In this document: positions 3,477 through 39,348 of the stretch, piece after piece
How the letters are laid out: the number at the start of each line of letters is the position of its first letter
How positions within the stretch are numbered: the first letter of the stretch is position 1
IMG/VR virus record: IMGVR_UViG_3300043409_001596
Span: 1 to 39,348 of that record
DNA from: a virus
Direction: 5' to 3' (one strand)
Length of the DNA stretch: 39,348 bases
Position numbers and translations under genes: made by a program
Notes under the pieces: model-generated
The model's input: only the letters and a program-made list of their open reading frames with translations
Databases searched by the model: none
What the model was told of the DNA's origin: nothing

Positions 3477-5486
3477 ATGAAAAAATCATTTATATCTTCA
3501 GTCTCCTTATCTTCCTTTGCTGGCCGCACTCGCAGCCATACTTTTACCGCCGGCGTAAACCTCATTATTGGGGTTAACGGTGCTGGCAAAACCACAATAT
3601 CAAACGCCATCAATTTTGTGTTGTCCGGCAAGGTGCCTGGCCTGCCAAAGACCAATGGCGGCATCATGGACAATCTTGGATCCGGCCTGAAAATGACGGC
3701 AAGCCTTGATATTGATGGAGTCTCCTATGATCGCAGCCTGAAACGCTCTGGCAGCGGTGTGAAAGGCGAATCCAAGATGCCAGCGCCAGCCAATTTGGTG
3801 CCGCCTGTCATGCTTGATCTGGAGCCGTTTCTGGCGGCTTCTCCTAAAGTCCGCGCCGGCATGATTTTGGGAGCCTGCGGCGACGACGTGCCCGCCAAGC
3901 TCCGCGCCCTCCTGGCTGAGACAGGGTTGGAAAAACTCACAGGCTCAATTCCACACCAAGACGGCGTGCAAGACTGGCTGGCCTGCATTGAAGACCTCGC
4001 CAAGGCCACAGCCTCCGGCTACACTCGGTCGATTGCCGAAATGCGCGGGACATTGGCAGGACTCGAAATTCTGGACACATCCGCCACAGCGCCTAGCGGC
4101 CCACCACTCTCTGAACTCCGCACCAATGTCTCCCGACTTGAACGCGAGATTGCAACCCTCACAGGAGAGGCCAACGCCATTGCTAGCCGGCCAACTCCCG
4201 TCCAGCCAATAGGCGAGCAACCAAACGGCACGGCAGAGGCATTCGAGGCCCAGCTAGCCGAGGCCCAAGCCAAGCTCCGCACTGCCCAAGCCGACCTTGC
4301 CACAGCCCAAGCACAACAACGTGCATTGACCATTCATCTTGATAGCAGGAGAGGGCTTGACACCAAATTAACCAAAGCCAAAGCTGCTTATCAAATCGTG
4401 GCGGATGGGTGGGAGCCGTTGGACGAGGCAAAGTTCAAGGCTGACATTGACGAGTTGCTGATTCAGTCCGACCGCCTGCAAACCAAGCTCAACGCCGCCA
4501 ACAACGACGAGCTAACTGGCAAAGGCACCTGCCCTTGCTGTGGAGCTTTGGCCGTCCACTGGAACCGCCAAGCCGCCGAGGAGTCAGACGTTGCAGGCTG
4601 GGAGGAGGCAATGAAGCAAAATACCGCCCGCCTAGCCACTTTGCGCGACCTTATGCGCCAAGCCGACGCCGTCTCCCGCGCTTCCGAAGCTGTTAATATT
4701 GCGAAGCAGGCCGTGGCAGATCACATTGCTACCTACCCGGACCCCCTTGAAATCGGCATTGAAGATTTGCAAGACAATTTAATTGATCTCACTGAAATTG
4801 CTGATGCGTTGGCCGTCGAGGCCCGCCGGGCTAGGGCTTGGGATGGCTACTTGTTGTCACACTTGCAGCACTCCAAGGGCCAAGAGCGTTTGGCCGATAT
4901 CAACATTGAACTCGGTCACCGTCAATCTGAGCTCGCCAGCGCCTTTGCAACTCTTGCCGACGCCGAAACCGGTCATGCTGCACAAGCTAAAGCCGAAGCC
5001 TGCGCGGCAACCCGTAAACAAGCCGAAGATCGGTTGGTGGAACTTGAGGCTGATGAAACAGAGTTTAAATCCGCCCGCCTAGCTTGGCAGGCTGGCGTGG
5101 CTGGGATCATGGATGCCGCTTTGCGCGAAGTCTTGAAGGTTTGCGAGGTGTTCACCGCCGACCTATTCGTGTCACCTCTTACCGTCCACGATTTGGACAT
5201 TGGGTGCTACGAGCATGGAGTATGGGTCAAGTTCGATGTCCTGCGTGGCTCCGATAAACGCATGGCCATTGCCGCAATTCAATGTGCCCTAGCCATCCGC
5301 CATTCAGGATTCCGGTTCGTCTGCATTGACGAGTTTGGCACGGTGGATCCAACGCGCAAACCTGCGTTCTTGGCCAATTTGGTTGCCGCTTGCGAAGCTG
5401 GATTGGTTGATCAGGTAATGGTTTTCGACAACCGGGATATTGATGGAGTGCCAGAAGCTGTGAATACAATTCATCTTGCTTTTTAA
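3477..5486 (+). CDS. Rad50/SMC-like recombination ATPase with zinc hook
   Basis: The 669-residue protein is an ABC-type SMC ATPase. Walker A GVNGAGKT is at residues 32-39. Long coiled-coil arms flank a CPCC zinc-hook motif at residues 352-355, and Walker B FVCIDEFG is at residues 614-621. The length is close to phage gp46-like and SbcC-like proteins. These normally work with an Mre11/gp47-type nuclease to process DNA ends; no such partner lies next to it. It is followed 56 bases later by a UvrD-type helicase, so end processing or recombination-dependent replication is the likely role. The leader before the ATG is pyrimidine-rich with no SD. Confidence 0.85.
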   Translation: MKKSFISSVSLSSFAGRTRSHTFTAGVNLIIGVNGAGKTTISNAINFVLSGKVPGLPKTNGGIMDNLGSGLKMTASLDIDGVSYDRSLKRSGSGVKGESKMPAPANLVPPVMLDLEPFLAASPKVRAGMILGACGDDVPAKLRALLAETGLEKLTGSIPHQDGVQDWLACIEDLAKATASGYTRSIAEMRGTLAGLEILDTSATAPSGPPLSELRTNVSRLEREIATLTGEANAIASRPTPVQPIGEQPNGTAEAFEAQLAEAQAKLRTAQADLATAQAQQRALTIHLDSRRGLDTKLTKAKAAYQIVADGWEPLDEAKFKADIDELLIQSDRLQTKLNAANNDELTGKGTCPCCGALAVHWNRQAAEESDVAGWEEAMKQNTARLATLRDLMRQADAVSRASEAVNIAKQAVADHIATYPDPLEIGIEDLQDNLIDLTEIADALAVEARRARAWDGYLLSHLQHSKGQERLADINIELGHRQSELASAFATLADAETGHAAQAKAEACAATRKQAEDRLVELEADETEFKSARLAWQAGVAGIMDAALREVLKVCEVFTADLFVSPLTVHDLDIGCYEHGVWVKFDVLRGSDKRMAIAAIQCALAIRHSGFRFVCIDEFGTVDPTRKPAFLANLVAACEAGLVDQVMVFDNRDIDGVPEAVNTIHLAF

Positions 5487-5529
5487 GTTATTCAGTATTA
5501 GTAGTGGGGCGCGTCACTTCAACGCGCAA

Positions 5530-5542
5530 GACATCCGACACC
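5530..5542 (+). promoter_or_regulatory. GACACC tandem leader motif (copy D)
   Basis: GACATCCGACACC lies directly before the helicase ATG at 5543, with no spacer. It matches the minus-strand leaders at 1733-1750, 12209-12228 and 18831-18844, so the element is strand-independent and tied to gene starts. Confidence 0.45.
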
Positions 5543-7009
5543 ATGAAAACGCCCTCCCAAGAACAGGCCGCCTGCATCGCCAGCCCCGCCCCCCGCCTCC
5601 TCATCAAAGCCGGGGCAGGATCGGGCAAATCCTTCGTCCTTGTCCACCGCATCGCCCAAGCCATCGCCAACGGGGCCGACCCGGCCAAGGTCATCGCCAT
5701 CTCGTTCACGGTGCAGGCTGGCCGCATTTTGGCCGACAGACTGGCTGTCTTGGGCATTGCCGGCCTTCGCCATGTAGGCACAATCCATGCCTTGTGCTTG
5801 GCTGAATCACACAAGTTTCCTACCTGGGGCATGCGCCGGCCTTTGATCATTGATGAGGATATGCAGGATGAGATGATCAATGCGGAACTGACTCGTTTAC
5901 GCCTCAACAAAGCGGTGCCAGTCCGCGATGTGGCCGCGACTCTGGCGGTGTTTGCTGCCGACAAGGCCAAGCCATCCATTTCCAACCGAGCTTATGCGCC
6001 GGCTAAGGCCGTGCGTCGAGCTATGGTCGCCGCAGGCCAGTCCAGTATGGACCTGTTACTTGGTGAGGCCGTGGCTTATCTGCCGGGTTGTTTGGGCAAA
6101 TTGGATGCATTGTTTTGGGATGAGTTTCAGGATACCGCCGCCGGCGACTACGCTTTGCTCGAACAGATTGAGGCCAAGTCAAAGACTGTGGTTGGCGATG
6201 AAATACAGTCTATTTTTGGTTTTCGTGGCTCTAGCCCTGACTACTTTCGCCACCTTGCCGCCAGCCAAGACTGGCAGCAACTCACGCTTGCCGATAATTA
6301 TCGGAGCAACGCAGCCATCGTGGACGCCGCCAACCGTCTGACCGCCGGGCAGGCTGGAGCAATCACCATGCGCCACATTCGCCGAGACGACTGGACGCCG
6401 CCCACCATCGGCAACTACGCCACCGAGGCCGCCGAGATTGACGCCATCCGCGAATGGCTAACAACCCGCCCCACAGGCTCCCGCGCTATCCTCTGCCGCC
6501 ACAACGCCTTGGCCGACCGCTTGCGTTTAGCCTTAGCCGACGCCCTGCCACCCTGCCCAGCTTTGGCCATTGATCCAGTCATGATCCGGCGGGCTATGGC
6601 AGCTATCCAGTGGGCAGATAGAAGTGCGGCCGATTGGTTGAGAGAGTCTCACGACTTGCTGCCCTACATCAACCATTTCGCCGGCCTTGTGTCCTCTACT
6701 CGGCGAGAAGCCCTGCTGCCAGCCATGGCCGAGGCCTTAGCTCAGGCGGAAGCTCAAGCAGTCTATGATTTCGGTGGACTGTATATCGGCACGGTGCATG
6801 GTGCCAAAGGATTGGAGTGGGACCATGTTCTGGTCGCCGGCGTGGAACAAACGTCATGGCCATGCACGGCTGAAATAATGCGTTTGTTTTACACTGCCAT
6901 TACTCGCGCCCGTGATAGTCTGAACATCACTTGTGCCCGACAAAGGCCTAGCTTTTATGGCAAAGGCTGGACGGATAGCGAAATGGCCAGTATTGTGGCC
7001 AAACTATAA
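5543..7009 (+). CDS. UvrD/Rep-type SF1 helicase (compact)
   Basis: The 488-residue protein has the SF1A helicase motifs in order. The Q-type motif is PSQEQAA near residue 4, Walker A is AGAGSGKS at 23-30, and DEFQDT is at 193-198. They are followed by a NYRS box, TVHGAKGLEWDHV near the C-terminus, and YTAITRARDSL as motif VI. It is 3'-5' UvrD/Rep/PcrA-like in type but shorter than the usual 650-720 residues, with reduced accessory subdomains. It would unwind DNA for replication or recombination with the adjacent SMC-like ATPase. The ATG at 5543 is directly preceded by the GACACC leader; an earlier in-frame start at 5504 has no support. Confidence 0.85.
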   Translation: MKTPSQEQAACIASPAPRLLIKAGAGSGKSFVLVHRIAQAIANGADPAKVIAISFTVQAGRILADRLAVLGIAGLRHVGTIHALCLAESHKFPTWGMRRPLIIDEDMQDEMINAELTRLRLNKAVPVRDVAATLAVFAADKAKPSISNRAYAPAKAVRRAMVAAGQSSMDLLLGEAVAYLPGCLGKLDALFWDEFQDTAAGDYALLEQIEAKSKTVVGDEIQSIFGFRGSSPDYFRHLAASQDWQQLTLADNYRSNAAIVDAANRLTAGQAGAITMRHIRRDDWTPPTIGNYATEAAEIDAIREWLTTRPTGSRAILCRHNALADRLRLALADALPPCPALAIDPVMIRRAMAAIQWADRSAADWLRESHDLLPYINHFAGLVSSTRREALLPAMAEALAQAEAQAVYDFGGLYIGTVHGAKGLEWDHVLVAGVEQTSWPCTAEIMRLFYTAITRARDSLNITCARQRPSFYGKGWTDSEMASIVAKL

Positions 7010-12357: not shown

Positions 12358-12996
12358 ATGAATGAAGTATCAGTTATGAATGCAGACATCTGCATTAAAG
12401 TCAACTTTACAGACAAAGAACGAAACCATTTTTGGGCTAAAGTCCACATATCAAATGGATGTTGGCTATGGCAAGGCGGGAAGCCAAAAAGAAGGTACGG
12501 CCAGTATTTTTTACGCCAAAAGCGTGTGGGAACTCATCGGGTAGCTTGGATGATGTCTCGGAATCGAGAAATACCTCCAGGTATGTTTATCTGCCACCAC
12601 TGCGATAATCCTCAGTGCGTCCGTCCAGACCATTTATTTCTTGGCTCAATCCAGGATAATTCCGATGATAAATGCAGAAAGGGAAGGCAGGCTAAAGGTG
12701 ATAGTCAAGGTTTGCGCAAACATCCAGGGGCGGCTGCACGCGGATTACGGCACGGCTGGCACACCCACCCTGAAAGCGTTCCTCGCGGCGATAATCACCA
12801 CTCAAGAAAACGTCCTGAAAGGATGGCTAGAGGTGTGAGGCATGGATTAGCCAAGTTCACCAATGATGACATAATAGAAATCAGGCGATTACGCAAAGAC
12901 GGGATGCTGTTACGCCTTATCGCTGAACGATTCAAATGCAGCCGTCCATGTATAGGATTCATTATTAAAGGCACAACTTGGGGTCATGTGATCTAA
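12358..12996 (+). CDS. HNH homing endonuclease
   Basis: The 212-residue protein is a typical free-standing phage HNH homing endonuclease. Residues 24-60 hold the FWAKVHISNGCWLWQGG and YGQYFLRQKRVGTHRVAW segments. The HNH core CHHCDNPQCVRPDHLFLG follows around residues 80-97, with SIQDNSDDK just after. The C-terminal region (LAKFTNDDIIEIRRLRKDGMLLRLIAERFKCSRPCI) is a DNA-binding helix-turn-helix of the NUMOD/IENR type. It is the only plus-strand gene between 11,284 and the right edge and lies between two minus-strand blocks, as expected for a mobile insertion. It cuts DNA at an intact cognate site to spread itself; it is not needed for phage growth. Confidence 0.88.
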   Translation: MNEVSVMNADICIKVNFTDKERNHFWAKVHISNGCWLWQGGKPKRRYGQYFLRQKRVGTHRVAWMMSRNREIPPGMFICHHCDNPQCVRPDHLFLGSIQDNSDDKCRKGRQAKGDSQGLRKHPGAAARGLRHGWHTHPESVPRGDNHHSRKRPERMARGVRHGLAKFTNDDIIEIRRLRKDGMLLRLIAERFKCSRPCIGFIIKGTTWGHVI

Positions 12997-16310: not shown

Positions 16311-16343
16311 AAAAGCCCGCTCAGCCAATGCCAAGCGGGCTTT
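16311..16343 (-). terminator. Strong terminator after the Acb2-like gene
   Basis: AAAGCCCGCT (16312-16321) and AGCGGGCTTT (16334-16343) form a perfect ten-base inverted repeat with a 12-base loop. On the minus strand it ends in TTTTCC, directly after the stop of the gene at 16350, so it separates the accessory island from the scaffold-capsid operon. The A and T flanks would let it work in both directions. Confidence 0.8.
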
Positions 16344-16349
16344 GTAGAC

Positions 16350-16661
16350 TTACATCTTCAACCCATCCGCCGTTGGCTCGATGACGAGCGAGGTCGGGTC
16401 TTTGCTGTGCGGGTATGGATTGGGCGTGTTCTGCGCCTTGAGATCCATGCCCAACCACATGATTGCTTCTTCGATTTTGGTGATAGCGAGGCTGCGTTCA
16501 CGCGATGATCGCACGGGATGGTCTGGCGCACGTTCTCCGGTGTAGCCTTTGTCACTGCCCTGCTTGAGGCGTTGGAGGCATTCGTCGAGGTCTTTGCGCC
16601 ATTGCTTCGTCTGGAAGACAAAAGCTTCCTGTTGGTTTGGGTTTGGTGTCGTGTTTTCCAT
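16350..16661 (-). CDS. Acb2/Tad1-type protein, putative anti-CBASS/anti-Thoeris sponge
   Basis: The 103-residue protein has an N-terminal helix (QTKQWRKDLDECLQRLKQG), a loop, and at residues 53-71 SRERSLAITKIEEAIMWLG. This is a close match to the hairpin signature of the Acb2/Tad1 family, in which a conserved S/T-x-A-x-T-K-L-E-E-A-x-M-W helix packs against a second helix. Known members form hexamers that sequester cyclic nucleotides or related signals from CBASS and Thoeris, so host immunity is not triggered. Known members are also often small and encoded among structural genes. The C-terminus (residues 80-103) is a polar tail. The start at 16661 is the first ATG. The name rests on the motif, and binding has not been shown. 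Confidence 0.68.
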   Translation of the reverse strand: MENTTPNPNQQEAFVFQTKQWRKDLDECLQRLKQGSDKGYTGERAPDHPVRSSRERSLAITKIEEAIMWLGMDLKAQNTPNPYPHSKDPTSLVIEPTADGLKM

Positions 16662-27654: not shown

Positions 27655-27671
27655 TGTTGTTTGTAGTTATG
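27655..27671 (-). promoter_or_regulatory. Conserved CATAACTACA leader before the portal gene
   Basis: On the minus strand, CATAACTACAAACAACA lies four bases before the portal ATG. Its TAA is the stop codon of the polyvalent gene. It matches the elements before the genes at 25241 and 16255, with most differences at two or three positions. Confidence 0.5.
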
Positions 27672-30600
27672 GCGTAGATGTTGGCTTGTGCAAGCCTATT
27701 GCGTGAGCCTGAGCTCGGGCGGCAGCCATGGCGTCTTCGCGGGCTTTTTTGAAGGCCGTAATGATGGATGGCGTTGGCTTGGATTTCTCGCTTGGCATAG
27801 CCTTGGCGGCTACCTGGGCAGCCTTGGCGGCATACAAGCGGCCGGCTAGTTCGGCGAACTGGCGGCGTTTGGCTGGATCCGTGATCGGCAGAGGCTTGGC
27901 TTTGCCGGGTGGGTCGGCGGTGTAGTCGTCGCGGTTAAGGGGTTGCGGACTCCAACGCTTAGTCGGGTTGAGGCGGTTGGCGCGGTAGAGTAAGGCGTCT
28001 GCCTGCGGGGTGACTTTGGTGTTGGCTTGGAATAGCAGCCTCGCCGGCGGCGTGAAAGCCTTGGTCAACCTCTCGCCTGTGGTGCTGATCTTGGGCTGGG
28101 CCGCAAAGATTGGCAGTTTGGGGGCCACGGCTGGATTTGGCAAGGCGGCATAACCTGAGCCAGCAGTGGTGCGCTCGCGAAGCACATCGTCCATATTGCG
28201 GAGGGGTTGCTTGATCAGGTTGGGGATGATGTTGTTCATCAGCATTTTGCTGCCTGCATTTTCGTCTGGGCTTTCCCGCTTTTCTTCCACGTCACGCACG
28301 AACTGCATGGCGTTTGCAAACCCTTGAAGGAAGGATTTGTCCTCAAGCGAGGACACAAGGCTCGACATCATGTAGGTCGTGTACAATGCATTTTCGCCCT
28401 GTGATTTGAGGCGCTTCACCTCTTGGTAGTTGCGATAAGCATCGATCCATGTGGTAAGCAGTGTGGCGGCCGGCTCGTAGCGTCCGAACGGAAGAGTGCC
28501 AAGCACTTTGCCATTGCCATCCTGCCACACGATGGAGTTCTCGCCGCCGTATTTGCGCAGGAATTGATCTGTCGCGCCACGGTCTTTTAGAGAGTGGGAC
28601 CGAGTGCCGACCAGCAAGACTTTTTTCTTGTCGTCGTCATCGTCACCTTCAAGCATTGAGGCCAGCGCCAGCCAGCCAAGGCCAGCCAATAGCGTTTCGG
28701 AGGCGTCTTTGATCTGCATGGCCTTTGGGTAGGACTTGATCATTGGCACGCCATTCTTGCCCATTGATCGCCAGCCAGCCATCGTCAGGCCGTAGAGCAA
28801 GCTGATGGCAGAGCCGCCGGCCTTCTTGATGCCTACGCGGACAATATTAGTTGGCGTGCGTTGGAACGGGAATATCCAGCGCATCAGACTGCCAACAATC
28901 TTGCGGGAGCGAATGCGCTTTTGCAGTTTTGCTGACTGCTCGTAGTCGCCTTTGGCTTCGGCCTCGGCAAGCTTTTGCTCGAGATCGCGAATGCCTTTGT
29001 AGCCGCCAAGCACAGTGTCCACGATCTCTGTGGCCATGTTTTCGTCTTGGAACAGCAACTCCTCGGCAGTCTTCATAACCTCGCCCCACACGGCGCTTGA
29101 TGTGTCGTTGATGGTGTTGGCTATCTCGGTGTCAATGAAGGTGGACCTTGCTTTGCCGGTAAGGCCTTGGGCCTTGGCGGCCACATGGGCGCGACGATAG
29201 GCCACGGCGGAGGCTTCGGCATACATGATGGCAGTCTTGAAGAAGGCATCGGTGAATCGCAGCACACGCCCTGGCAGGCGGTTGATGCGGCCCAGTTTGC
29301 CTCCCACGCTTGCGCGGATGTTGCCGACTTTGTCTAGGTCGCCATTTACAACATCAATCTCCATTGGTTCGCCCAAATATTTGTGGCGGATGGTGTCGCC
29401 CTCGGTCAGGAAGGTTTGGCGGGCCATGTCGAAGGCTGGGCCAATGCCCTGCCAGAAGCCTTTCAAGACGTGCTTGAACTCGCGGAACTGTGCGGAGTTT
29501 GGATCTTGGTAGGCAAGGTTGAGCGTGGCCTCGGCTAGGCGCTGGCCTGTGTAGTGCCATGCCACCTGGGCGGCGTTGCCTGTGATGTTGGCCACCTGAG
29601 TTTGAGGGCCGGAGAGGAGAGGCCAGTTGATCCAGTATTCGTACACCTTGTCAAAGGCGCTGGACTTGGCGGCGGTGAACTCGCGGGCAAAGGCGTAGTA
29701 GTTCGCCATGTCATCGGGGTCGAAGGGCACAAACACGCGAACGCGCTGGCCGCCGGGCGTCATCACCACCTTGGACATGAGCTTGCCGGAGTTGCGGGCC
29801 TTGGCCGATTGGAGGGCGTAGGCCATGACGCGGTTTACCTCGGCGGTAACTTGCCCCACGGTCTGGCGGGTGCCTTTAATGAGGGCTGACTGGGCGCTGA
29901 TGGCCTTGGGTGGGTTACTAAGTCCAACGGCCTTCTTAAGCTTGGCAAAGCCAGCCTTGATGAGGCCGCCAAAATCGGTGCCCGCCTTGACCTGCTCGGC
30001 CACGGCGGGGCGGATGATGGCGTTGGTGGCGTCGTTGATGAACTGGCCTACGTCGTCTTGGTTGAGGTTGAGGGCGTTGGCAATGTGCTCGTCGGAGAAG
30101 CCTCGGAAGGCGAGGCGCATGATGTTGTAGCCGTCGTTGTCTTTGCCTTTGTAGGCGTCGAGGCCTTCTTTGACGGCGGGGAGGTCAAGTATGGCGGAAT
30201 GGAGGGCCACACGGTCGGTGCCGGCGAGCATGAGGTCATCTTCAGTGACTCCGATGTTCTTGAGCACTGCCTGCTTGATCTTCTCGCTTTCGGCGTCGTC
30301 TTTCTCGAGTAACTCCTCTTTCGTTTCTTGGGCGCGGGCCGTCTTGAGCGCGGCCTCCACGTCTGCCCGGCGGCTGCCCCGTGCCTCGGCTAGCTCGGCC
30401 TCTAGGCTGGCGATGCGGCGGGCCTTGCCTGCGTCGGTAGGCAGGATGCGGAGGTTGCGGCGGACGGCCTCGCTTGGGCCAAATACGATGTCGATGGCCT
30501 TGGTCCAGCGTTCCTGGGGTGTCTCGAGCGGGTCGCGGCGGGCGCTCATGGCCTGAGCTAGGCGGGTGCCGGTGTCGAGGTAGTAGTTGCCCACCTTGTT

Positions 30601-33600
30601 TAAGAGGGTGCGGATGTTCTTGTCGCCAGTGAGGCGGGCCTCTCGGGTGAGGAACTGGAACGCCTGCCCGAGTACAGCCTGCTCGTCCACGTCGAGGAGT
30701 TTGCTTTCTTCGGCCATGTCGGCGGCCCATTGCACATACTTCTCAGGGTCGCTATCGAAGGTCTTCTTGGCCCACTCGCGGAGCTTGTCGAGTTGCACGG
30801 TTTCTGGTCCGCCTAGTTGGTCGCGGGCGGAGGTGAGTGCCTGATACACGGCACGGGCTTCGGGATACTCGAACTGTTTGGACAGGTTGCGGCCTGACAT
30901 CTTGCCGCTTGCCTGCACGGCGTCGATGGCGTCGGGGTCGTTGCGTAGTGCCTCCCTTGCGGCGGCCTCTTCTTCGGCGATGGCCTGTTGCTCGGCAATG
31001 AAAGCCTCCATGTCGGCATCGGTCTGGCCAGCTTCTTCAGGCTCGGGGGAAGCGGGTTCAACTGGGGGATTTAAGATGGCGTGAGCCTCGGCAGGCTTCA
31101 TCTTGTGAATCTGCTTTTTCGTATAGCCGCGGTCCAGTAACTGTTGGCGCATGTCTCGCGTGATCTGAGTTGGCACGCCGGCGTTTGGTGGAGCGCGAAG
31201 AATAGCCTGACTGGTTGAATCAACCCGCTCCGATTCGGCCAGCGACCGCACCAATTCCATCCCAGCGTCATCCCACGGCGTGACAATCGCACGGATAGTT
31301 GCATCGCCGCGCCGTTTGGCTTTTTCCAAGCGGTGGTTACCGTCACTGACCACCAACCCCGCTGATTTCTTGTCCGTGGAGAATAGCGCAGAAGCGTCCA
31401 CCATGATAGGTGCCGACATGTCTGGGATGGAAGCAATAGTCTTCTCATCGAACGCAGCGTTGCCGGGGCGCAGTTGGTCTAGAGGAACCTCCAGCATGTA
31501 AGCTCCGTGGGGGAAGGCATCGGTGTCAGACTCAAGCTCGCGCAGAAAAGCTGGGTTCTTGTCGGCGAGGAACTTAATGGCCTCCGCTTTTGCAGAAGCG
31601 ACGGGGTCGTCGCCACCCAACGAGAGACGTGGATTTTCCCGTGATGCCAACGCCGTGAGCGGCCCAAAGACAGCCCGTGTAAGGGCGGGCGGAATGCCGT
31701 TACCGATAACCTTTACCGCCAGTTCCTGCGACTCGGGGAGTTTGTAGGAATCAGGAAGTCCTGTCACCCGCGCCAGAACCCGTGGAGTGGCACGAAGTTG
31801 GCGGCCATCGGGGAGCAGGATGCGGTTCACCTCGGCGTTGGTAGCCTTGATGACGGGGGCCGGTTCGTTTGAGTAGGAGAACGGGAGGTTGTTAGCTGAT
31901 GCTGACCCACCCGCCAGAAATACTGGCTCCTTGGTGGAGAGCAAGTCCACCCCCATCAAGGCCATACGTTTGACGATGTAGCTGTCTCCCTCACCATCCT
32001 TGGCCTTCAACGGCACAGGACTTGAAGGGAGTTCGTCCACCAAGTCTTCCACTGCCGACCACCATGACTTGTAGGGTTTCCCAGCCTTGGGGCCGTGAGT
32101 TGGCTTGGGTGCGGGAGGCAGTCCTCCTTTGGCGACTGCCCGAATGAGGAACCGCTTGCGATGGGTAGGTGCTCCGTAGTCCGCTGCGTCATACACGCCC
32201 TGATCCCAGGTGTAGCCAAGATCGTCCAGTGTGTCGGTGATGATCTTTAGGGAAGAGCTTCCTTCGTAGGCTTTCACGTTTTCCAATGTGAACACTGCTG
32301 GACGGATGATTTTGAGAGCTTTAGCAGTTGCCTCGGCGGTAGTAACATCCGCGTCGTTCTCCCCCTTTGAGGCATGTGTGTTGACACCGGAGAACTGTTT
32401 GCACACTGGGCTGGCGTGGAAGTACTCCGCCCCTTTGAACTTGTTAAAGTTTATGGTGCGGATGTCCGCCGCATCAATGTGCTCGCCGTGGTTCTGGGCG
32501 TAAACTTCGGCAATATTTGCGTCGAACTCGACCGCGCCAAATCCGCGCACCAGACCTCGTAGACCGACTTCTAGGAGTCCGCCACCGCTGAAGAAGGAGA
32601 GGAGTGACGGGATTTTTGCATCTCCGCCATCTGTTGTAGAGCCTCCTCCGCTTCCTTCACCAGTGAATCTCTCATCCCATCCGTTGCGCCCAGGCTTGCC
32701 GTTAAGTAGGTAGCTTTGGATTGCGGCTCCGGTTGGTCTGTATTTGAGATATTCACTATGACTCAGATTAGCCTTTTTCATTGCGGCGGCAACCTGATCT
32801 TTTGTCGGACGAAAATTCTTGCCGTATCTCCCTGCGGCAAGCGTGGTGACTGCCGCCACTTTCTGGAACATATCCCCTAGTGACTGAAGCGTCTGCCCAG
32901 TGGTGAAGGTGTCGTCCACCAAAACGATGGTGCTCCCCTCGGGTGGTAGTTCTCCCGACCAGTTATGAACCGTGTGAGCTCGGTCGATGTTGCTCGCATC
33001 CGTGTTGTGGGCACTGGACACCTTCACTAGTTTCGTCCACACCTTGCCGCCGATCTTTCGGTTGAGTTCATTGGCCAGAGCAAGAGGAATCATGTTCATG
33101 GAATCTCCCTCTCGGCTAAGAACCGGGACAAACACCAATTTGTCCGTGTCTCCGCCGACCGCTTGGCGCACTTCCTTGATTGCTGCCGGCTTCAGGAAGT
33201 TTTCGACCAGGTTGAGAGCCTGACGAACACCTCCGTGGAACTTGGCTGAATTGAAATCCGGGTGCGATCTTAGCGCATGGACACTAGTGGAGGACGCTAC
33301 CTTTGCAGGAGACTCTTCTGCGTCTGCATCGAACCGGTTAAGAGTATCAGCCTCACTGTCGTTTAGAGGAGCACGAAGAATGGCCTGACTTGGCGGCACT
33401 GATTCGGCTTCGATGTCGAGCACTTTCCCGCGTTGCAGCATCCTACGCTCCTCCTCAGTCACTTGGTCGTTAAGACCGGCCTCGTCTGGCTCAATGTTGT
33501 AATACATCAGGCCTGTGCTCTTGGCCTCCGCCTCCGTCAGCCAAGTGCGGCCGTCCACGGTCTTCCAAGCGGCAGCTTCTGGCGAGGCTTGGCCGGGCGG

Positions 33601-36600
33601 CAGGCTGAGTGACGGCTTGCCTACTCCTCCTCTTCGGAGGATGGAAGTTGGCCGAACCACGGCGGCAGGATTCCTTCCGCCACCATTACCTCCAGATTGT
33701 CCACTGCCTCCTCTGGGATTAGGCCCCCTAGGCCCTCCACGTTGAGGAACAGTTCCTGAGTCATCGGTTCCTTCAGGCCCTCCAGGATGATCGAAGCCGA
33801 CCCCCATGGCTGCTGCCCAGGCTGTGTCTCCCAGTCCTTTACCATCTTTAATTGACCCTGCAATGTCCTTACCTTGGGGAAAGTCTTTGCTGGTTGTAGC
33901 AAGGGCAAAGATTTCTGCCCTTGCGGTTTCGATGTCGATGTCTCCATGGAAGTATCTGTTCCATATAGCACGCACTTTGTCAATATTACCCTTGGTCTTG
34001 AACTCTTTGGGGAAAAGAAGCCGAACGGCCTCCCATGTGATACTTTGAACCTCCCTAGGCAGCAGATCGAACACCACAGCGGCCCTTCTATAGGCTTCGG
34101 CATTGGCGGCATAAGTGCCCTTGATGCCGGCGATGCCGTCGTTTTTGACTCCACCGCCACCAAAGTTCTGCGTGACTTCCAGACTGGAGCCTGAATGTGG
34201 CATCCAGTGGATTGCTGCGATGGCATGCGTATCCATCGTGACGTGCCCGCTTTTGTTAGCAGGATCCACGATGTTATTGTAGAAACTGCGCACCTTGTGC
34301 TGATCGCCAAGAGCAATACTAATAACCTCATGCTCATCAGTGATGACGCGCCCCTTAATCGTCACTGACCGCTCCATGATGGAAATCGCTTTTTCAATGG
34401 TATTGTAACCACCCCAAGCCACCTTACTGAGCGTGACCTTGTCGTTATTGACCTGCATCGCCCCAGTCCGCCCATCTGGAGTCACAATTGGGTAAGCTGA
34501 AGAGTCTCTGACCTCGGACAAAATACGAATGAATCGAGCTTTGAGCTTTCTATCTTTGATCTGGCTCAGGGTTTTCCCCTCAAGATCCTTGAGCATAAGC
34601 TGTGCAGCTTTCAAGTTCTCGGCGGCCTTTTTGTTGTCCCAGTTCTCCCAGTACGTGTTGCCGTCATCATCCACCTTTTTGATCGCTCCATGCTGGTACA
34701 CGATACCTTCGGGGTTGGCGTCGGTAATCAACGATTCTCTAGTTGAAATAGTTGGTTCTGTGTCTCCTTTTTTGATGGATTCAACAGGCTGCGGCTCACC
34801 GCTGCGCATGATGAACTGCTTGGTCATCTCTGGGCTCCAGGCCGTCTCTTGGTCGTTTTTCCAAATGTTCATCATCCTCTGCGCAAGCGACACATTCATG
34901 AACCAGTCTTTTTGCGGGCTGAAGACAGCCAAAACGGCGCTAGCTTGCTCAATGGTGGCGTTGTATTGCTCCCCAAACTTTTGGGCGATGATGTTGGCAC
35001 CGTCATACCAAAGCCTGGCCACGTCGCGCAGGCGTTTTGGGAATAACTCAATGAGAGCCAACAGATTGGACTCCACTGCGGTGATGTAATCCTCATAAAT
35101 CTGGGCGGCCATATCCTCTGGAATGGCATTGCCGTCGAGTATCTCTGAAATGGCCTTGGACTGATAGTCGGCGGCCTTGGCGGCCTTGGCGTTGGCCTTG
35201 GCGAGGTTGGCATGCGCGACATCCTTGGCCTTGACGGCGCGGGCTGTCAGGTTTGCTGCAATGAACTCGTTCACCAATGAAGCCCTCACTTGAGCGGTCT
35301 TCATGCCTCTGAGCAAAGCAACCCGATCTTTGATGCCTTTCTGGGCGGCGGCTAAGGCGGCTTTGGCCTTTTTGACCTCTTCTTTGGCGGCAATGACCGG
35401 CGCGTCGGCCTTGGCCATGGCAGCGTGCAATGCCCGGTATTTTTTTGCAACAACCGGATACCTTGTGAGGATCAGGGCGTTCTGGCGGTAGGCCAAAGGA
35501 TTGTTTTTGCGCAGCCGGTCCAACTCTACGTTGTGGCCACTGTCGGTGCCTTCGCCGGTCTTGCTTGCCGTCGTGGGATTACTGGTGCCGACCGTTCTGC
35601 CGGCCTTGACCGAGTCTTGCACCTTTTTGACAAAGGCTTCATTGACCGCCTGTCCTACGCTGGCCTGGCTTGGTGGCGCATACAATTCCACACCTTTATC
35701 CGTCTCGCGAGACTTGATTGTGCTGAACAGGTCATCAAATGCCTTGGCCACGGGCTCGATCTCGTTGTCGAGCAAGTATGGGTAGCGGTTGGGGTTGCGG
35801 ACAAAGTCTTCAATGCGGACGACGTTGGCAAGGTAATCGTTCTGATACCCTTTTTGCTGCATCTTGTGGATGACATAGTTCTCAAAGGCGCGGGCGGCAC
35901 GCTCGATAGTGCTGCCCCAGTAGTCACGCTGGCCTTTGTCATTCATGCGGGCACGTTGTGCCATCGGTGAGGCGTCCAATGCTTTGACAACGGCCTCAAA
36001 TGCATCTTCGACTTCTGGCCGTACACCTTCTTGAAGCTTCCAGTCAGCTTCGTTGATGGATGAGGAGAACCCCTTTTTGATTTCATTCCACCTCTTGACC
36101 GACAAGGATTGGCCTGTTTTCTGGTTCACGTAACGAGTCGCGGGCTCGTTTGTGATATAGACGCCGGCTCTGTCTTTGATTGAGACTCCACGGGCTCGGC
36201 CAAAGTAATGGTCGAACGCATGGAACAACTCATGCGCCAATGTGCCTGCCCCACGCGTCTTGGTGAGGTTGATGACCAAACTGCCAGGCTCGTAGTGGGC
36301 CGACGCCCAGCCTTGGCCTCGAGAGCCAAATCCAAGGCCTATCTGGCCATTTAGCGACAGTGCTTTGGTCGGAATGTTGAGGATACTGGCCAAATCGTGA
36401 AGAGCGTCATACGCATCATTCATCATGCCTTGGCGTTCTGCGGCATTTTTACCTTGGCTGACCCAATTGCCAAACTCCACGCCGCGGAATCCAAACGCGT
36501 CGTTAAACATTTGTGATGTAGCATCTTTGCCTTTGCGCCAATCTTCGGCTGATCGTGGACGGTTCGTGTCTGTCCGCAAATCCGTCTCTTTGACGTTATC

Positions 36601-39348
36601 GCGCTCTTTTACGTCTTCCCATGCCTTCACAAGGTCGTCGTAATTGCTGTCGCGGTATGCTAATGCTTCTTTGGAATCTGCGAACGTCTTGAGCTTGCGA
36701 TAGTGCGGGTCACCTTTTTTATTGATTCCCCATGCGCCTGTCCGGCCACGCACCTCAAACTCAATCTTCGCGACGGGCTTGCCTTTTGCCAACTTGGCCT
36801 TCACGGCCTCCATGAGGTCATCAAGGTTATCTGCGCGGACTCGGTAGCCGTCCACATTCGCGTCGGCGTAAGGTGCGGGGATTTTCTTTGAACTGTCTGC
36901 GCCCTCACCAAAGCGATAAGCATTCGGGTAATTACGGACCTCTCCAACTCTGTCCCAATGCTCACGCGGAAGGCCTTGTAGGAATGCCACGCGGTCGGCC
37001 AACACGCCAAGGTTGTATTCCGGCCCGCGCATCATGGCGAGCATCTCTGGCACGCCTTTGTCTTCGGCAAAGCGCATCAATTGCTTCACCATCTTCACTT
37101 TTCCCACCCATGCGTTCAGCTTGTACCCTTGTTGAGGCTTGGACGGGATGACGGAGCGAAGCGTCGTCGCGTAGGCGGCAAGCTCGTCGTCTTCAATGCT
37201 GGCGATTTCTGACTTGGGCCAGATTTCGGAGAGAGTCTTGCCGGCGATCTCGTCGTCGGTAAGGGTTTGGTTGACGGTGGCCACTTTGTCTTTGCGGGCA
37301 CCCCCAAGCTTTTCGCCAAAGTCATCAATGCCCTCTTTGGCCGGACTGGTAGGCGCTGAAGCTGGGGCCGCTTTGGCCGGCGCAGTCGATGGGGCAGGCG
37401 TTGGGGCAGGCGTTGGCTGAGTCGTGACCGGTGGCGTCGGGCGGGCGGCTGTGGCCTTGGGCGAATAGGCGGCGGCACCATTCATGCGCATTGGCATGAT
37501 CACGAACGTTGCATTGCTTGTGTGCAGAGTAGCTGGACTAATGTCGTCGGCAATGCGCAGTTCTATTTGCTCATTGCCCAGATTGCGGGCCACACGAAGG
37601 ATCGTCTGAACATACTCTGGGTCGTAAGAGGCCAAGAATTTGGCGTTTGGCTGGATGTTGTGGACGTAGTCACCTCGCTCTACATCGCTAACAAATACGC
37701 CAAGACTGCCATCTGGATTGCGGTAGATGGAAACAGCCTTGGTGTAGGTGGACTCGCTCTTGTCGCTTGGCAGCACCTTGATGACGGCGCGGGCTTGGCT
37801 CATGATGCTGAACCAACGGCCGGTGTCGATGGTGTGAACCGGCACCTTTCTGTCTTCTGGGATGATCGCTTCGCCGTTGTAATTGCCTTTTTCAACAGGC
37901 CATGGCTGTGCGTTTCCTTTTTCGTCGTAACTGACGTTGTCGGCACCTTTGCCTCCGCCGTTTTCCTGCTCAACCCGGACAAGTATCCTGCCATTGGTAG
38001 CCCACAGATTGGTGCCGTCGCCTTTGACGGTCGTTAGGTTGTCCCGTGTCGTATCAGTCGAAACCATCGGATAGATGGCGGCCACCACATCGGCCGTGGT
38101 CTTTGGCTTTTTGATGGCTGGTACCGCCGTTGGAGATTGCGCCGTTGGCTTGGCGGGCATGTCGTCTTTGCTTTGGGTCGTGGGGAACTTGTCGGCCCTT
38201 TTCTGGAACAGGGCGAGCGCCCCTTTCTCATTCAGGATGGTAAATGTTCCGTCGCCAGGCACTTCGATGGTGATTGTGCCAACGGCTTCGCGCACCTTTG
38301 CGCTCAACTTTTTGACCTGACTCGACAGCTCTGCTGATTCGTCAGCCGTTAGCGGCCGGCGCTCTTGGTTGGCGAATTTGGCAGTGATTTCATCGATCTC
38401 ATTCAATGCGTCACGAACATCTTCCGGCATTTCAGACCGCCTTGGCGCGGCTTTTACGGCGGCGGCTACTTCAGTCAGCAAATACTTCTTCTGGCCCTTG
38501 GCGGCAACAGGATCGAATGGCGCGGCCTGCTTGGCAGGTTCCGGCATGGCCTCTTCTTTGGCGATGGCGGCGGCTTGTGGGGGCGTGACGTTTGACTCTG
38601 CCGTTATTTTGTTAAATGGGTCTTCTGATAGCGAGTATGGCCGCCATTGCATTGGGCGATCATACATAAACTCTCCCAAGTGCGTAGCTACTCCATCAGG
38701 ACCGATATAGGCGAAACTACTTTCCCTCATTGAGCCATCAAACTCTTCAATTAAATCAATAAATCTATCTTTTATGATTTTTGAAGCCTCTTCTAAACTT
38801 GATGCAGGCACTGCTTGGAGCGGGAATGCTATCGGATAAGTGTTTAACCCCCTGAGTTGGAAAGTGACTGTATTTGGAGGCGCGGCATATTGGCGGCCTG
38901 GGTATTTTTCACGGTCGAATAAATCTTTAGCTGTTGGAGGTGGCAACTTTTGTGGAACAGTCTGAACAAGTGCTTGGCTTGGTTTAACTTGCTCGCTTGG
39001 AGCATCGATAGAATCGAAAACTGCCTGCCAGTCGGGGCTTTCCTGCAAATCTGCGTTGAAGCCTGTCATCAAGCGCCAGAATGACCTGGCGTATTTCCGC
39101 AAAGATCCGTTAGGAGCCAGCTTGTCCAACCGGGCGGCAAGATCAATGGGCTCGGTAAGGCCAAGGTCAACGATGTTGCCGGCGGCCTTGAGCATGGCCT
39201 CACGGCGTTCTTTAGGCAGGGCCACTTGCTCGACTGGCTGCGTTGATGCCGGAGGAGTGCGAAGGATGCTGTTCTTGGAGTGTGCCGCCTCAGAATCTTG
39301 CCTCCGTTTTAACTCCTGCTGATACTCGGTTTCTGTTATTGGGTCGAT
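27667..39348 (-). CDS. Giant polyvalent protein (partial at N-terminus)
   Basis: The reading frame is open through the right edge, so at least 3,893 residues are encoded and the true start is outside; numbering here begins at the edge. Domains in order are as follows. A helical N-terminal segment spans about 41-115. A sliding-clamp-like region spans 417-622 and ends IMPMRM. An LPD1-type region with zincin motif HELFH is at 1039-1043. A DUF7178-like region carries SPQKDW at 1477. A phosphoribosyltransferase has VLVDDTFTTG at 2142, and a C5 cytosine methyltransferase spans about 2246-2570 with Cys2316. A ParB-like DGNHR motif is at 2669 and a helical motif at about 2729-2758. An LPD38-like C-terminal region contains SGPQTQVANITGN and PFQRTPTNIV. 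Such proteins are known to be ejected with phage DNA; the portal follows directly. Confidence 0.85.
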   Translation of the reverse strand: MDPITETEYQQELKRRQDSEAAHSKNSILRTPPASTQPVEQVALPKERREAMLKAAGNIVDLGLTEPIDLAARLDKLAPNGSLRKYARSFWRLMTGFNADLQESPDWQAVFDSIDAPSEQVKPSQALVQTVPQKLPPPTAKDLFDREKYPGRQYAAPPNTVTFQLRGLNTYPIAFPLQAVPASSLEEASKIIKDRFIDLIEEFDGSMRESSFAYIGPDGVATHLGEFMYDRPMQWRPYSLSEDPFNKITAESNVTPPQAAAIAKEEAMPEPAKQAAPFDPVAAKGQKKYLLTEVAAAVKAAPRRSEMPEDVRDALNEIDEITAKFANQERRPLTADESAELSSQVKKLSAKVREAVGTITIEVPGDGTFTILNEKGALALFQKRADKFPTTQSKDDMPAKPTAQSPTAVPAIKKPKTTADVVAAIYPMVSTDTTRDNLTTVKGDGTNLWATNGRILVRVEQENGGGKGADNVSYDEKGNAQPWPVEKGNYNGEAIIPEDRKVPVHTIDTGRWFSIMSQARAVIKVLPSDKSESTYTKAVSIYRNPDGSLGVFVSDVERGDYVHNIQPNAKFLASYDPEYVQTILRVARNLGNEQIELRIADDISPATLHTSNATFVIMPMRMNGAAAYSPKATAARPTPPVTTQPTPAPTPAPSTAPAKAAPASAPTSPAKEGIDDFGEKLGGARKDKVATVNQTLTDDEIAGKTLSEIWPKSEIASIEDDELAAYATTLRSVIPSKPQQGYKLNAWVGKVKMVKQLMRFAEDKGVPEMLAMMRGPEYNLGVLADRVAFLQGLPREHWDRVGEVRNYPNAYRFGEGADSSKKIPAPYADANVDGYRVRADNLDDLMEAVKAKLAKGKPVAKIEFEVRGRTGAWGINKKGDPHYRKLKTFADSKEALAYRDSNYDDLVKAWEDVKERDNVKETDLRTDTNRPRSAEDWRKGKDATSQMFNDAFGFRGVEFGNWVSQGKNAAERQGMMNDAYDALHDLASILNIPTKALSLNGQIGLGFGSRGQGWASAHYEPGSLVINLTKTRGAGTLAHELFHAFDHYFGRARGVSIKDRAGVYITNEPATRYVNQKTGQSLSVKRWNEIKKGFSSSINEADWKLQEGVRPEVEDAFEAVVKALDASPMAQRARMNDKGQRDYWGSTIERAARAFENYVIHKMQQKGYQNDYLANVVRIEDFVRNPNRYPYLLDNEIEPVAKAFDDLFSTIKSRETDKGVELYAPPSQASVGQAVNEAFVKKVQDSVKAGRTVGTSNPTTASKTGEGTDSGHNVELDRLRKNNPLAYRQNALILTRYPVVAKKYRALHAAMAKADAPVIAAKEEVKKAKAALAAAQKGIKDRVALLRGMKTAQVRASLVNEFIAANLTARAVKAKDVAHANLAKANAKAAKAADYQSKAISEILDGNAIPEDMAAQIYEDYITAVESNLLALIELFPKRLRDVARLWYDGANIIAQKFGEQYNATIEQASAVLAVFSPQKDWFMNVSLAQRMMNIWKNDQETAWSPEMTKQFIMRSGEPQPVESIKKGDTEPTISTRESLITDANPEGIVYQHGAIKKVDDDGNTYWENWDNKKAAENLKAAQLMLKDLEGKTLSQIKDRKLKARFIRILSEVRDSSAYPIVTPDGRTGAMQVNNDKVTLSKVAWGGYNTIEKAISIMERSVTIKGRVITDEHEVISIALGDQHKVRSFYNNIVDPANKSGHVTMDTHAIAAIHWMPHSGSSLEVTQNFGGGGVKNDGIAGIKGTYAANAEAYRRAAVVFDLLPREVQSITWEAVRLLFPKEFKTKGNIDKVRAIWNRYFHGDIDIETARAEIFALATTSKDFPQGKDIAGSIKDGKGLGDTAWAAAMGVGFDHPGGPEGTDDSGTVPQRGGPRGPNPRGGSGQSGGNGGGRNPAAVVRPTSILRRGGVGKPSLSLPPGQASPEAAAWKTVDGRTWLTEAEAKSTGLMYYNIEPDEAGLNDQVTEEERRMLQRGKVLDIEAESVPPSQAILRAPLNDSEADTLNRFDADAEESPAKVASSTSVHALRSHPDFNSAKFHGGVRQALNLVENFLKPAAIKEVRQAVGGDTDKLVFVPVLSREGDSMNMIPLALANELNRKIGGKVWTKLVKVSSAHNTDASNIDRAHTVHNWSGELPPEGSTIVLVDDTFTTGQTLQSLGDMFQKVAAVTTLAAGRYGKNFRPTKDQVAAAMKKANLSHSEYLKYRPTGAAIQSYLLNGKPGRNGWDERFTGEGSGGGSTTDGGDAKIPSLLSFFSGGGLLEVGLRGLVRGFGAVEFDANIAEVYAQNHGEHIDAADIRTINFNKFKGAEYFHASPVCKQFSGVNTHASKGENDADVTTAEATAKALKIIRPAVFTLENVKAYEGSSSLKIITDTLDDLGYTWDQGVYDAADYGAPTHRKRFLIRAVAKGGLPPAPKPTHGPKAGKPYKSWWSAVEDLVDELPSSPVPLKAKDGEGDSYIVKRMALMGVDLLSTKEPVFLAGGSASANNLPFSYSNEPAPVIKATNAEVNRILLPDGRQLRATPRVLARVTGLPDSYKLPESQELAVKVIGNGIPPALTRAVFGPLTALASRENPRLSLGGDDPVASAKAEAIKFLADKNPAFLRELESDTDAFPHGAYMLEVPLDQLRPGNAAFDEKTIASIPDMSAPIMVDASALFSTDKKSAGLVVSDGNHRLEKAKRRGDATIRAIVTPWDDAGMELVRSLAESERVDSTSQAILRAPPNAGVPTQITRDMRQQLLDRGYTKKQIHKMKPAEAHAILNPPVEPASPEPEEAGQTDADMEAFIAEQQAIAEEEAAAREALRNDPDAIDAVQASGKMSGRNLSKQFEYPEARAVYQALTSARDQLGGPETVQLDKLREWAKKTFDSDPEKYVQWAADMAEESKLLDVDEQAVLGQAFQFLTREARLTGDKNIRTLLNKVGNYYLDTGTRLAQAMSARRDPLETPQERWTKAIDIVFGPSEAVRRNLRILPTDAGKARRIASLEAELAEARGSRRADVEAALKTARAQETKEELLEKDDAESEKIKQAVLKNIGVTEDDLMLAGTDRVALHSAILDLPAVKEGLDAYKGKDNDGYNIMRLAFRGFSDEHIANALNLNQDDVGQFINDATNAIIRPAVAEQVKAGTDFGGLIKAGFAKLKKAVGLSNPPKAISAQSALIKGTRQTVGQVTAEVNRVMAYALQSAKARNSGKLMSKVVMTPGGQRVRVFVPFDPDDMANYYAFAREFTAAKSSAFDKVYEYWINWPLLSGPQTQVANITGNAAQVAWHYTGQRLAEATLNLAYQDPNSAQFREFKHVLKGFWQGIGPAFDMARQTFLTEGDTIRHKYLGEPMEIDVVNGDLDKVGNIRASVGGKLGRINRLPGRVLRFTDAFFKTAIMYAEASAVAYRRAHVAAKAQGLTGKARSTFIDTEIANTINDTSSAVWGEVMKTAEELLFQDENMATEIVDTVLGGYKGIRDLEQKLAEAEAKGDYEQSAKLQKRIRSRKIVGSLMRWIFPFQRTPTNIVRVGIKKAGGSAISLLYGLTMAGWRSMGKNGVPMIKSYPKAMQIKDASETLLAGLGWLALASMLEGDDDDDKKKVLLVGTRSHSLKDRGATDQFLRKYGGENSIVWQDGNGKVLGTLPFGRYEPAATLLTTWIDAYRNYQEVKRLKSQGENALYTTYMMSSLVSSLEDKSFLQGFANAMQFVRDVEEKRESPDENAGSKMLMNNIIPNLIKQPLRNMDDVLRERTTAGSGYAALPNPAVAPKLPIFAAQPKISTTGERLTKAFTPPARLLFQANTKVTPQADALLYRANRLNPTKRWSPQPLNRDDYTADPPGKAKPLPITDPAKRRQFAELAGRLYAAKAAQVAAKAMPSEKSKPTPSIITAFKKAREDAMAAARAQAHAIGLHKPTSTP

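What the first reader, a model, noticed from the sequence alone, without database searches (positions are those of the whole stretch)
16350..16661. Acb2/Tad1-like protein between the scaffold and a modification island
Residues 53-71 match the signature helix of the anti-CBASS/anti-Thoeris sponges (SLAITKIEEAIMWLG). The gene is short, single-copy, and followed by a strong terminator, so it may be expressed with the accessory island rather than the capsid. It implies that the host lineage carries CBASS or Thoeris.
Basis: partly seen in the sequence, partly recalled or inferred. Interest (0 to 1): 0.8.

Follow-up and report, generated by a model that had tools for sequence, protein, structure and literature searches.

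The report
Phage nucleotide-signal sponge, variant subfamily
A small phage gene encodes a relative of the proteins phages use to soak up bacterial alarm molecules; it belongs to a distinct branch with a different signal-binding end, and this single gene has moved between otherwise unrelated phages.

Summary
Window 16350-16661 (minus strand) is a 103-aa ORF that passes Pfam's cut-off for PF24729, the Acb2/Tad1 hairpin domain. A strong hairpin follows its stop codon. AlphaFold2 gives a two-helix hairpin whose core superposes on solved Tad1 at 1.2 Å over 50 residues.

First, this is not a canonical Acb2. More than 160 IMG/VR relatives form a branch that lacks the N-terminal I-K-G-Y motif, which carries the dinucleotide-binding tyrosine of Acb2, and has no Tad1 β-domain. 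It has instead a conserved C-terminal tail, NPYPxSKDPxxxxIEPTADGLKL. The hairpin residues are kept. I infer an oligomeric sponge whose trimer interface binds cyclic trinucleotides and whose tail shapes an unknown second pocket. Second, the gene is mobile cargo. In seven phage contexts with unrelated flanks it is 82-92% identical in DNA, homology ending close to the ORF ends, with dN/dS of 0.02-0.06. Carrier phages show no Shine-Dalgarno enrichment, unlike canonical Acb2 phages, so hosts are probably Bacteroidota-like.

CBASS or Thoeris in the host is not shown: none of eleven carrier assemblies had a CD-NTase (SMODS) hit above cut-off.

The parts
16350..16661 (-). Acb2/Tad1-hairpin sponge gene, 103 aa
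   Evidence: Pfam PF24729 above cut-off; 163 IMG/VR relatives in one profile scan; 63 of 65 relatives match the same Pfam family
16554..16640 (-). First hairpin helix (residues 8-36) with K19, R22, D26
   Evidence: AlphaFold2 model, pLDDT about 87-96; K19 and R22 invariant; K19 aligns with K26 of PaP2 Acb2
16428..16502 (-). Second hairpin helix (residues 54-78) with the RERS...TK..E..MWLGMDLK signature
   Evidence: pLDDT about 96-97 over most of it; superposes on CbTad1 7uav_C, 1.2 A over 50 residues, 30% identity; R54 aligns with R67 of PaP2 Acb2
16353..16424 (-). Subfamily-specific conserved C-terminal tail (residues 80-103, PNPYPHSKDPTSLVIEPTADGLKM)
   Evidence: Y83 invariant, P82 P84 S86 P89 T97 A98 D99 L101 at least 90%; absent from canonical Acb2
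16312..16343 (-). Terminator-like hairpin right after the stop codon, ahead of the scaffold-position ORF
   Evidence: RNA fold -24.2 kcal/mol, z -4.36

Best explanation
The gene makes a small all-helical protein of the Acb2/Tad1 hairpin family. I infer that it assembles into a hexamer, as Acb2 and Tad1 do, and sequesters nucleotide alarm signals made by host defences such as CBASS, so the effectors stay off and the phage can finish its cycle. The conserved hairpin (K19, R22, R54, E55, T61, K62, E65, W69) probably keeps the trimer-interface pocket that binds cyclic trinucleotides in Acb2 and Tad1. The side pocket for cyclic dinucleotides or gcADPR must differ, because the N-terminal I-K-G-Y motif of Acb2 and the beta-domain of Tad1 are missing; the conserved tail with invariant Y83 probably replaces them and sets a different second ligand. 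The gene is cargo exchanged alone between unrelated phages, probably ones that share hosts. Shown: family membership at domain level, hairpin fold prediction, conserved tail, lack of the canonical motif, single-gene transfer, purifying selection. Inferred: hexamer, ligands, target system, expression.
For: Pfam hit above cut-off and 63 of 65 relatives. Profile search of the PDB finds Tad1 8kbb at E 7e-6. The template-free model superposes on CbTad1 at 1.2 A, the highest identity in the list, and the only BFVD hit below 0.001 is a crAssphage protein named Acb2/Tad1 hairpin domain-containing. hhalign links the family to PaP2 Acb2 and T4 Vs.4 and pairs K19 with PaP2 K26 and R54 with R67. Homology confined to about the ORF among seven contexts with unrelated flanks, dN/dS 0.016-0.061, and one carrier among 295 genomes of one order fit a mobile viral anti-defence gene.
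Against: The aromatic residues that hold dinucleotides in T4 Acb2 (Y8, F82; PMC12657218) are not at the aligned positions. hhalign probabilities to canonical Acb2 are only 55-66%. Helical hairpins match many unrelated structures at equal or higher Z, so the fold alone proves little. No hexamer could be modelled and no binding is known for this branch. No CBASS cyclase was found in carrier assemblies, though those are partial and the viral contigs may be misbinned.
Confidence: 0.7

Rival explanations
1. It is a sponge for one narrow class only: cyclic trinucleotides in the trimer pocket, with no working dinucleotide or gcADPR pocket; the tail is structural.
For: Hairpin residues conserved while the canonical dinucleotide motif is absent.
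Against: The tail is as conserved as the hairpin, with an invariant tyrosine, which suggests a binding role.
Confidence: 0.3
2. It uses the hairpin only as an oligomerisation scaffold and does something else, such as binding a host protein or DNA through the conserved tail.
For: No ligand known for this branch; the hairpin fold is common; conserved short C-terminal tails can be docking peptides.
Against: Conservation covers the hairpin residues shared with both Acb2 and Tad1; single-gene spread and rarity in host genomes fit anti-defence.
Confidence: 0.2
3. It is a head-assembly accessory, since it sits beside the scaffold-position and capsid genes.
For: Position in the window.
Against: Near-identical copies lie in contexts with no shared neighbours. 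In the three carriers with a remotely related capsid gene the two genes lie about 15-44 kb apart. A strong hairpin separates it from the scaffold-position ORF.
Confidence: 0.03

Closest known systems
Tad1 (CbTad1 7uav, CmTad1 8kbb)
   Same: Second-helix signature (CmTad1 RENAMAITKLQECLMWLG against RERSLAITKIEEAIMWLG here) and hairpin geometry; profile E 7e-6, 1.2 A over 50 residues.
   Different: No N-terminal beta-domain; different conserved C-terminal tail; typical lengths 78-112 aa against 123-138 for the solved Tad1 chains.
Acb2 (PaP2 p26, 8h2j; T4 Vs.4, 7uq2)
   Same: Same Pfam hairpin family, similar size, all-helical; lysine in helix 1 and (in PaP2) arginine in helix 2 align.
   Different: Lacks the I-K-G-Y N-terminal motif and the R-A-x-x-x-P end; phages carrying it mostly lack Shine-Dalgarno signals.
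crAssphage ctcc615 protein A0A345BP16 and hypothetical proteins of Bacteroides phage BK735P4, Tenacibaculum phage Gundel_1 and phage cr111_1
   Same: Same branch, 44-51% identical over 83-99% of the query.
   Different: Found in unrelated phages; annotated as hypothetical or by the hairpin domain alone; none characterised in the papers I could read.

Membership tests
Acb2/Tad1 hairpin domain (PF24729) | Profile match above the curated cut-off | tested here: met
   29.8 bits against 27; 63 of 65 relatives match at E 0.01 or better
Acb2/Tad1 hairpin domain (PF24729) | Two-helix hairpin fold | tested here: met
   AlphaFold2 pLDDT 80 overall, about 96 in the hairpin; CbTad1 1.2 A over 50 residues
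Canonical Acb2 | N-terminal I-K-G-Y motif with the dinucleotide-binding tyrosine (Y11 PaP2, Y8 T4) | tested here: not met
   Tyrosine 97-100% conserved in canonical families, no counterpart in the query family
Canonical Acb2 | C-terminal aromatic stacking on the ligand (T4 F82) | tested here: not met
   The aligned residue is invariant K75; invariant Y83 may substitute, untested
Canonical Acb2 | Hexamer binding cyclic di- and trinucleotides | not testable with these tools
   No complex prediction or assay available
Tad1 | N-terminal four-strand beta-domain before the hairpin | tested here: not met
   Models have helices only; no room for it in most relatives, 78-112 aa
Tad1 | gcADPR sequestration | not testable with these tools
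   Needs a binding assay

The most novel reading that the evidence does not exclude
A third architecture of the hairpin sponges, found mainly in phages of hosts without Shine-Dalgarno signals, in which a conserved C-terminal tail builds a pocket for a nucleotide signal not bound by Acb2 or Tad1.
Probability: 0.3. Interest if true: 0.7.

Novelty: new variant of a known kind. Interest (0 to 1): 0.45.

Why it matters
Hairpin sponges have been characterised mainly from Pseudomonas, enterobacterial, Bacillus and Clostridium phages or prophages. A large uncharacterised branch in Bacteroidota-type phages, with a changed ligand end and clean single-gene transfer, points to nucleotide-signalling defences in gut and environmental bacteria and gives a ready set of proteins for finding their signals. 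The tail and Y83 make the ligand question directly testable.

Tried and rejected
Single-sequence phmmer against the PDB gave only weak Tad1 hits, E 0.07; profiles were needed. Foldseek against the PDB gave no hit below 0.001 with either model, and no Acb2 chain appeared in the second-look lists. NCBIfam and PADLOC have no model that matches it. The idea that a terminator is a family-wide feature was rejected: 36% of relatives have a strong downstream fold against 29% of random positions. A capsid link was rejected by context. Host lookup by tRNA failed, as there are none. The capsid protein has only one weak named phage relative. Papers with the Acb2 and Tad1 pocket mutants are not in the library, so pocket residues other than T4 Y8 and F82 rest on memory. 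A test of co-occurrence of sponge and CBASS across one bacterial order was not possible because only one of 295 genomes carried the sponge.

Full report
What is there. Window 16350-16661 (minus) encodes 103 aa starting at ATG. It passes Pfam's curated cut-off for PF24729, Acb2/Tad1 hairpin, and two PHROGs of unknown function match the second helix. The window is a 39,348-base IMG/VR virus record with one copy of the gene. Downstream lies a hairpin of -24.2 kcal/mol, then a 308-aa ORF in the scaffold position (no Pfam or PHROG hit) and the capsid gene (Phage_capsid_3; PHROG major head protein). Upstream lie an unassigned 222-aa ORF that reads like a glycosyltransferase and a methyltransferase-like ORF.

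Relatives. A scan with the single protein found 28 loci, and a profile scan found 163, of which 80 were kept. In named phages it occurs in Bacteroides phage BK735P4, Tenacibaculum phage Gundel_1 and crAss-like phages. In genome contigs it occurs mostly in Bacteroidales assemblies, but in only 1 of 295 genomes of one order, that one being the carrier assembly the search was centred on, so it is a viral gene rather than a host gene. 63 of 65 diverse members match PF24729.

A distinct branch. PaP2 p26 is identical to the crystallised Acb2 (8h2j), and T4 Vs.4 is 7uq2. Their relatives share an N-terminal I-K-G-Y motif with a tyrosine conserved at 97-100%. The query branch lacks it. It has instead invariant K19, R22, M68, W69, G71, M72, K75 and Y83 and a tail of 20 or so residues ending in TADGLKL. 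Profile comparison links the branches (E 1.2e-4 to PaP2, 5.6e-5 to T4, each for one comparison) and pairs K19 with PaP2 K26 and, to T4, with K23, and R54 with PaP2 R67. T4 F82, which stacks on dinucleotides (PMC12657218), aligns with K75. A global alignment to PaP2 puts Y83 opposite F93, a possible substitute. From memory, PaP2 K26 and R67 are ligand residues; this could not be checked because those papers are not held.

Fold. With 65 sequences the AlphaFold2 model reaches pLDDT 80, with the hairpin near 96. Its residues 20-80 fit CbTad1 at 1.2 Å over 50 residues and 30% identity; Z is 6.4, within the background for helical hairpins, so the weight lies on rmsd plus identity. The tail is predicted at low confidence, which could mean disorder without ligand or without the hexamer.

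Mobility. DNA similarity to the close relatives covers 287-313 bases, that is the ORF and almost nothing more. Between pairs of relatives it extends at most about 80 bases beyond (L002 with L008, L007 with L009). At protein level the flanks of seven contexts share nothing except one HNH domain between the window and L006. dN/dS is 0.016-0.061; dS near or above 1 in most pairs approaches saturation, so those ratios are rough. The pattern is repeated transfer of a single gene under strong purifying selection. In the three carriers with a remotely related capsid gene the sponge lies about 15-44 kb from it (positions), so it does not travel with capsid genes.

Hosts. None of 30 window ORFs has a Shine-Dalgarno-like motif, against 67% in the T4 stretch and 59% in PaP2. 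Across 80 carrier loci the frequency is 11% against 10% background, and directly before the sponge gene it is 17% against 16%, while canonical Acb2 genes have 64-68%. A few carriers (L189, L207) do show the motif. Hosts that do not use this signal, such as Bacteroidota and some other phyla, are therefore likely for most carriers (host taxa from general knowledge). None of eleven carrier assemblies had a CD-NTase (SMODS) above cut-off, and 18 of 295 genomes of the order did. SMODS misses many CD-NTases and the assemblies are partial, so this neither shows nor excludes CBASS. Thoeris genes were not searched for.

How it likely works. Acb2 and Tad1 are hexamers that bind trinucleotides at trimer interfaces and dinucleotides or gcADPR in side pockets; Tad1's pocket uses its C-terminal tail (PMC12043709). 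By analogy this protein should keep the trinucleotide site in the hairpin and use its own tail for a second site. That is inference.

Verdict. A genuine member of a known domain family and a new variant of it: same scaffold, different ligand end, different phage and host range. Function as a nucleotide-signal sponge is likely but unproven.

Noticed in passing
window 27667-39225 (-): A 3852-aa polyvalent protein with LPD1, LPD5, DUF7178 and a C5-cytosine DNA methylase domain.
   Followed up: no
window 3477-7009 (+): An SbcC-like AAA ATPase next to a UvrD helicase; the pair resembles Gabija gene order, but the hits also fit ordinary phage recombination genes.
   Followed up: no
window, all genes: No Shine-Dalgarno-like motif before any of 30 ORFs.
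   Followed up: partly
window 12358-12996 (+): HNH homing-type endonuclease; the only flanking similarity to another sponge-carrying phage (L006).
   Followed up: no
L002 5920-6363 and L008 5919-6363; L007 1042-1426 and L009 5949-6324: In two pairs of unrelated phages the shared DNA reaches about 40-80 bases beyond the sponge ORF, including part or all of a downstream hairpin, hinting at the size of the transferred unit.
   Followed up: no
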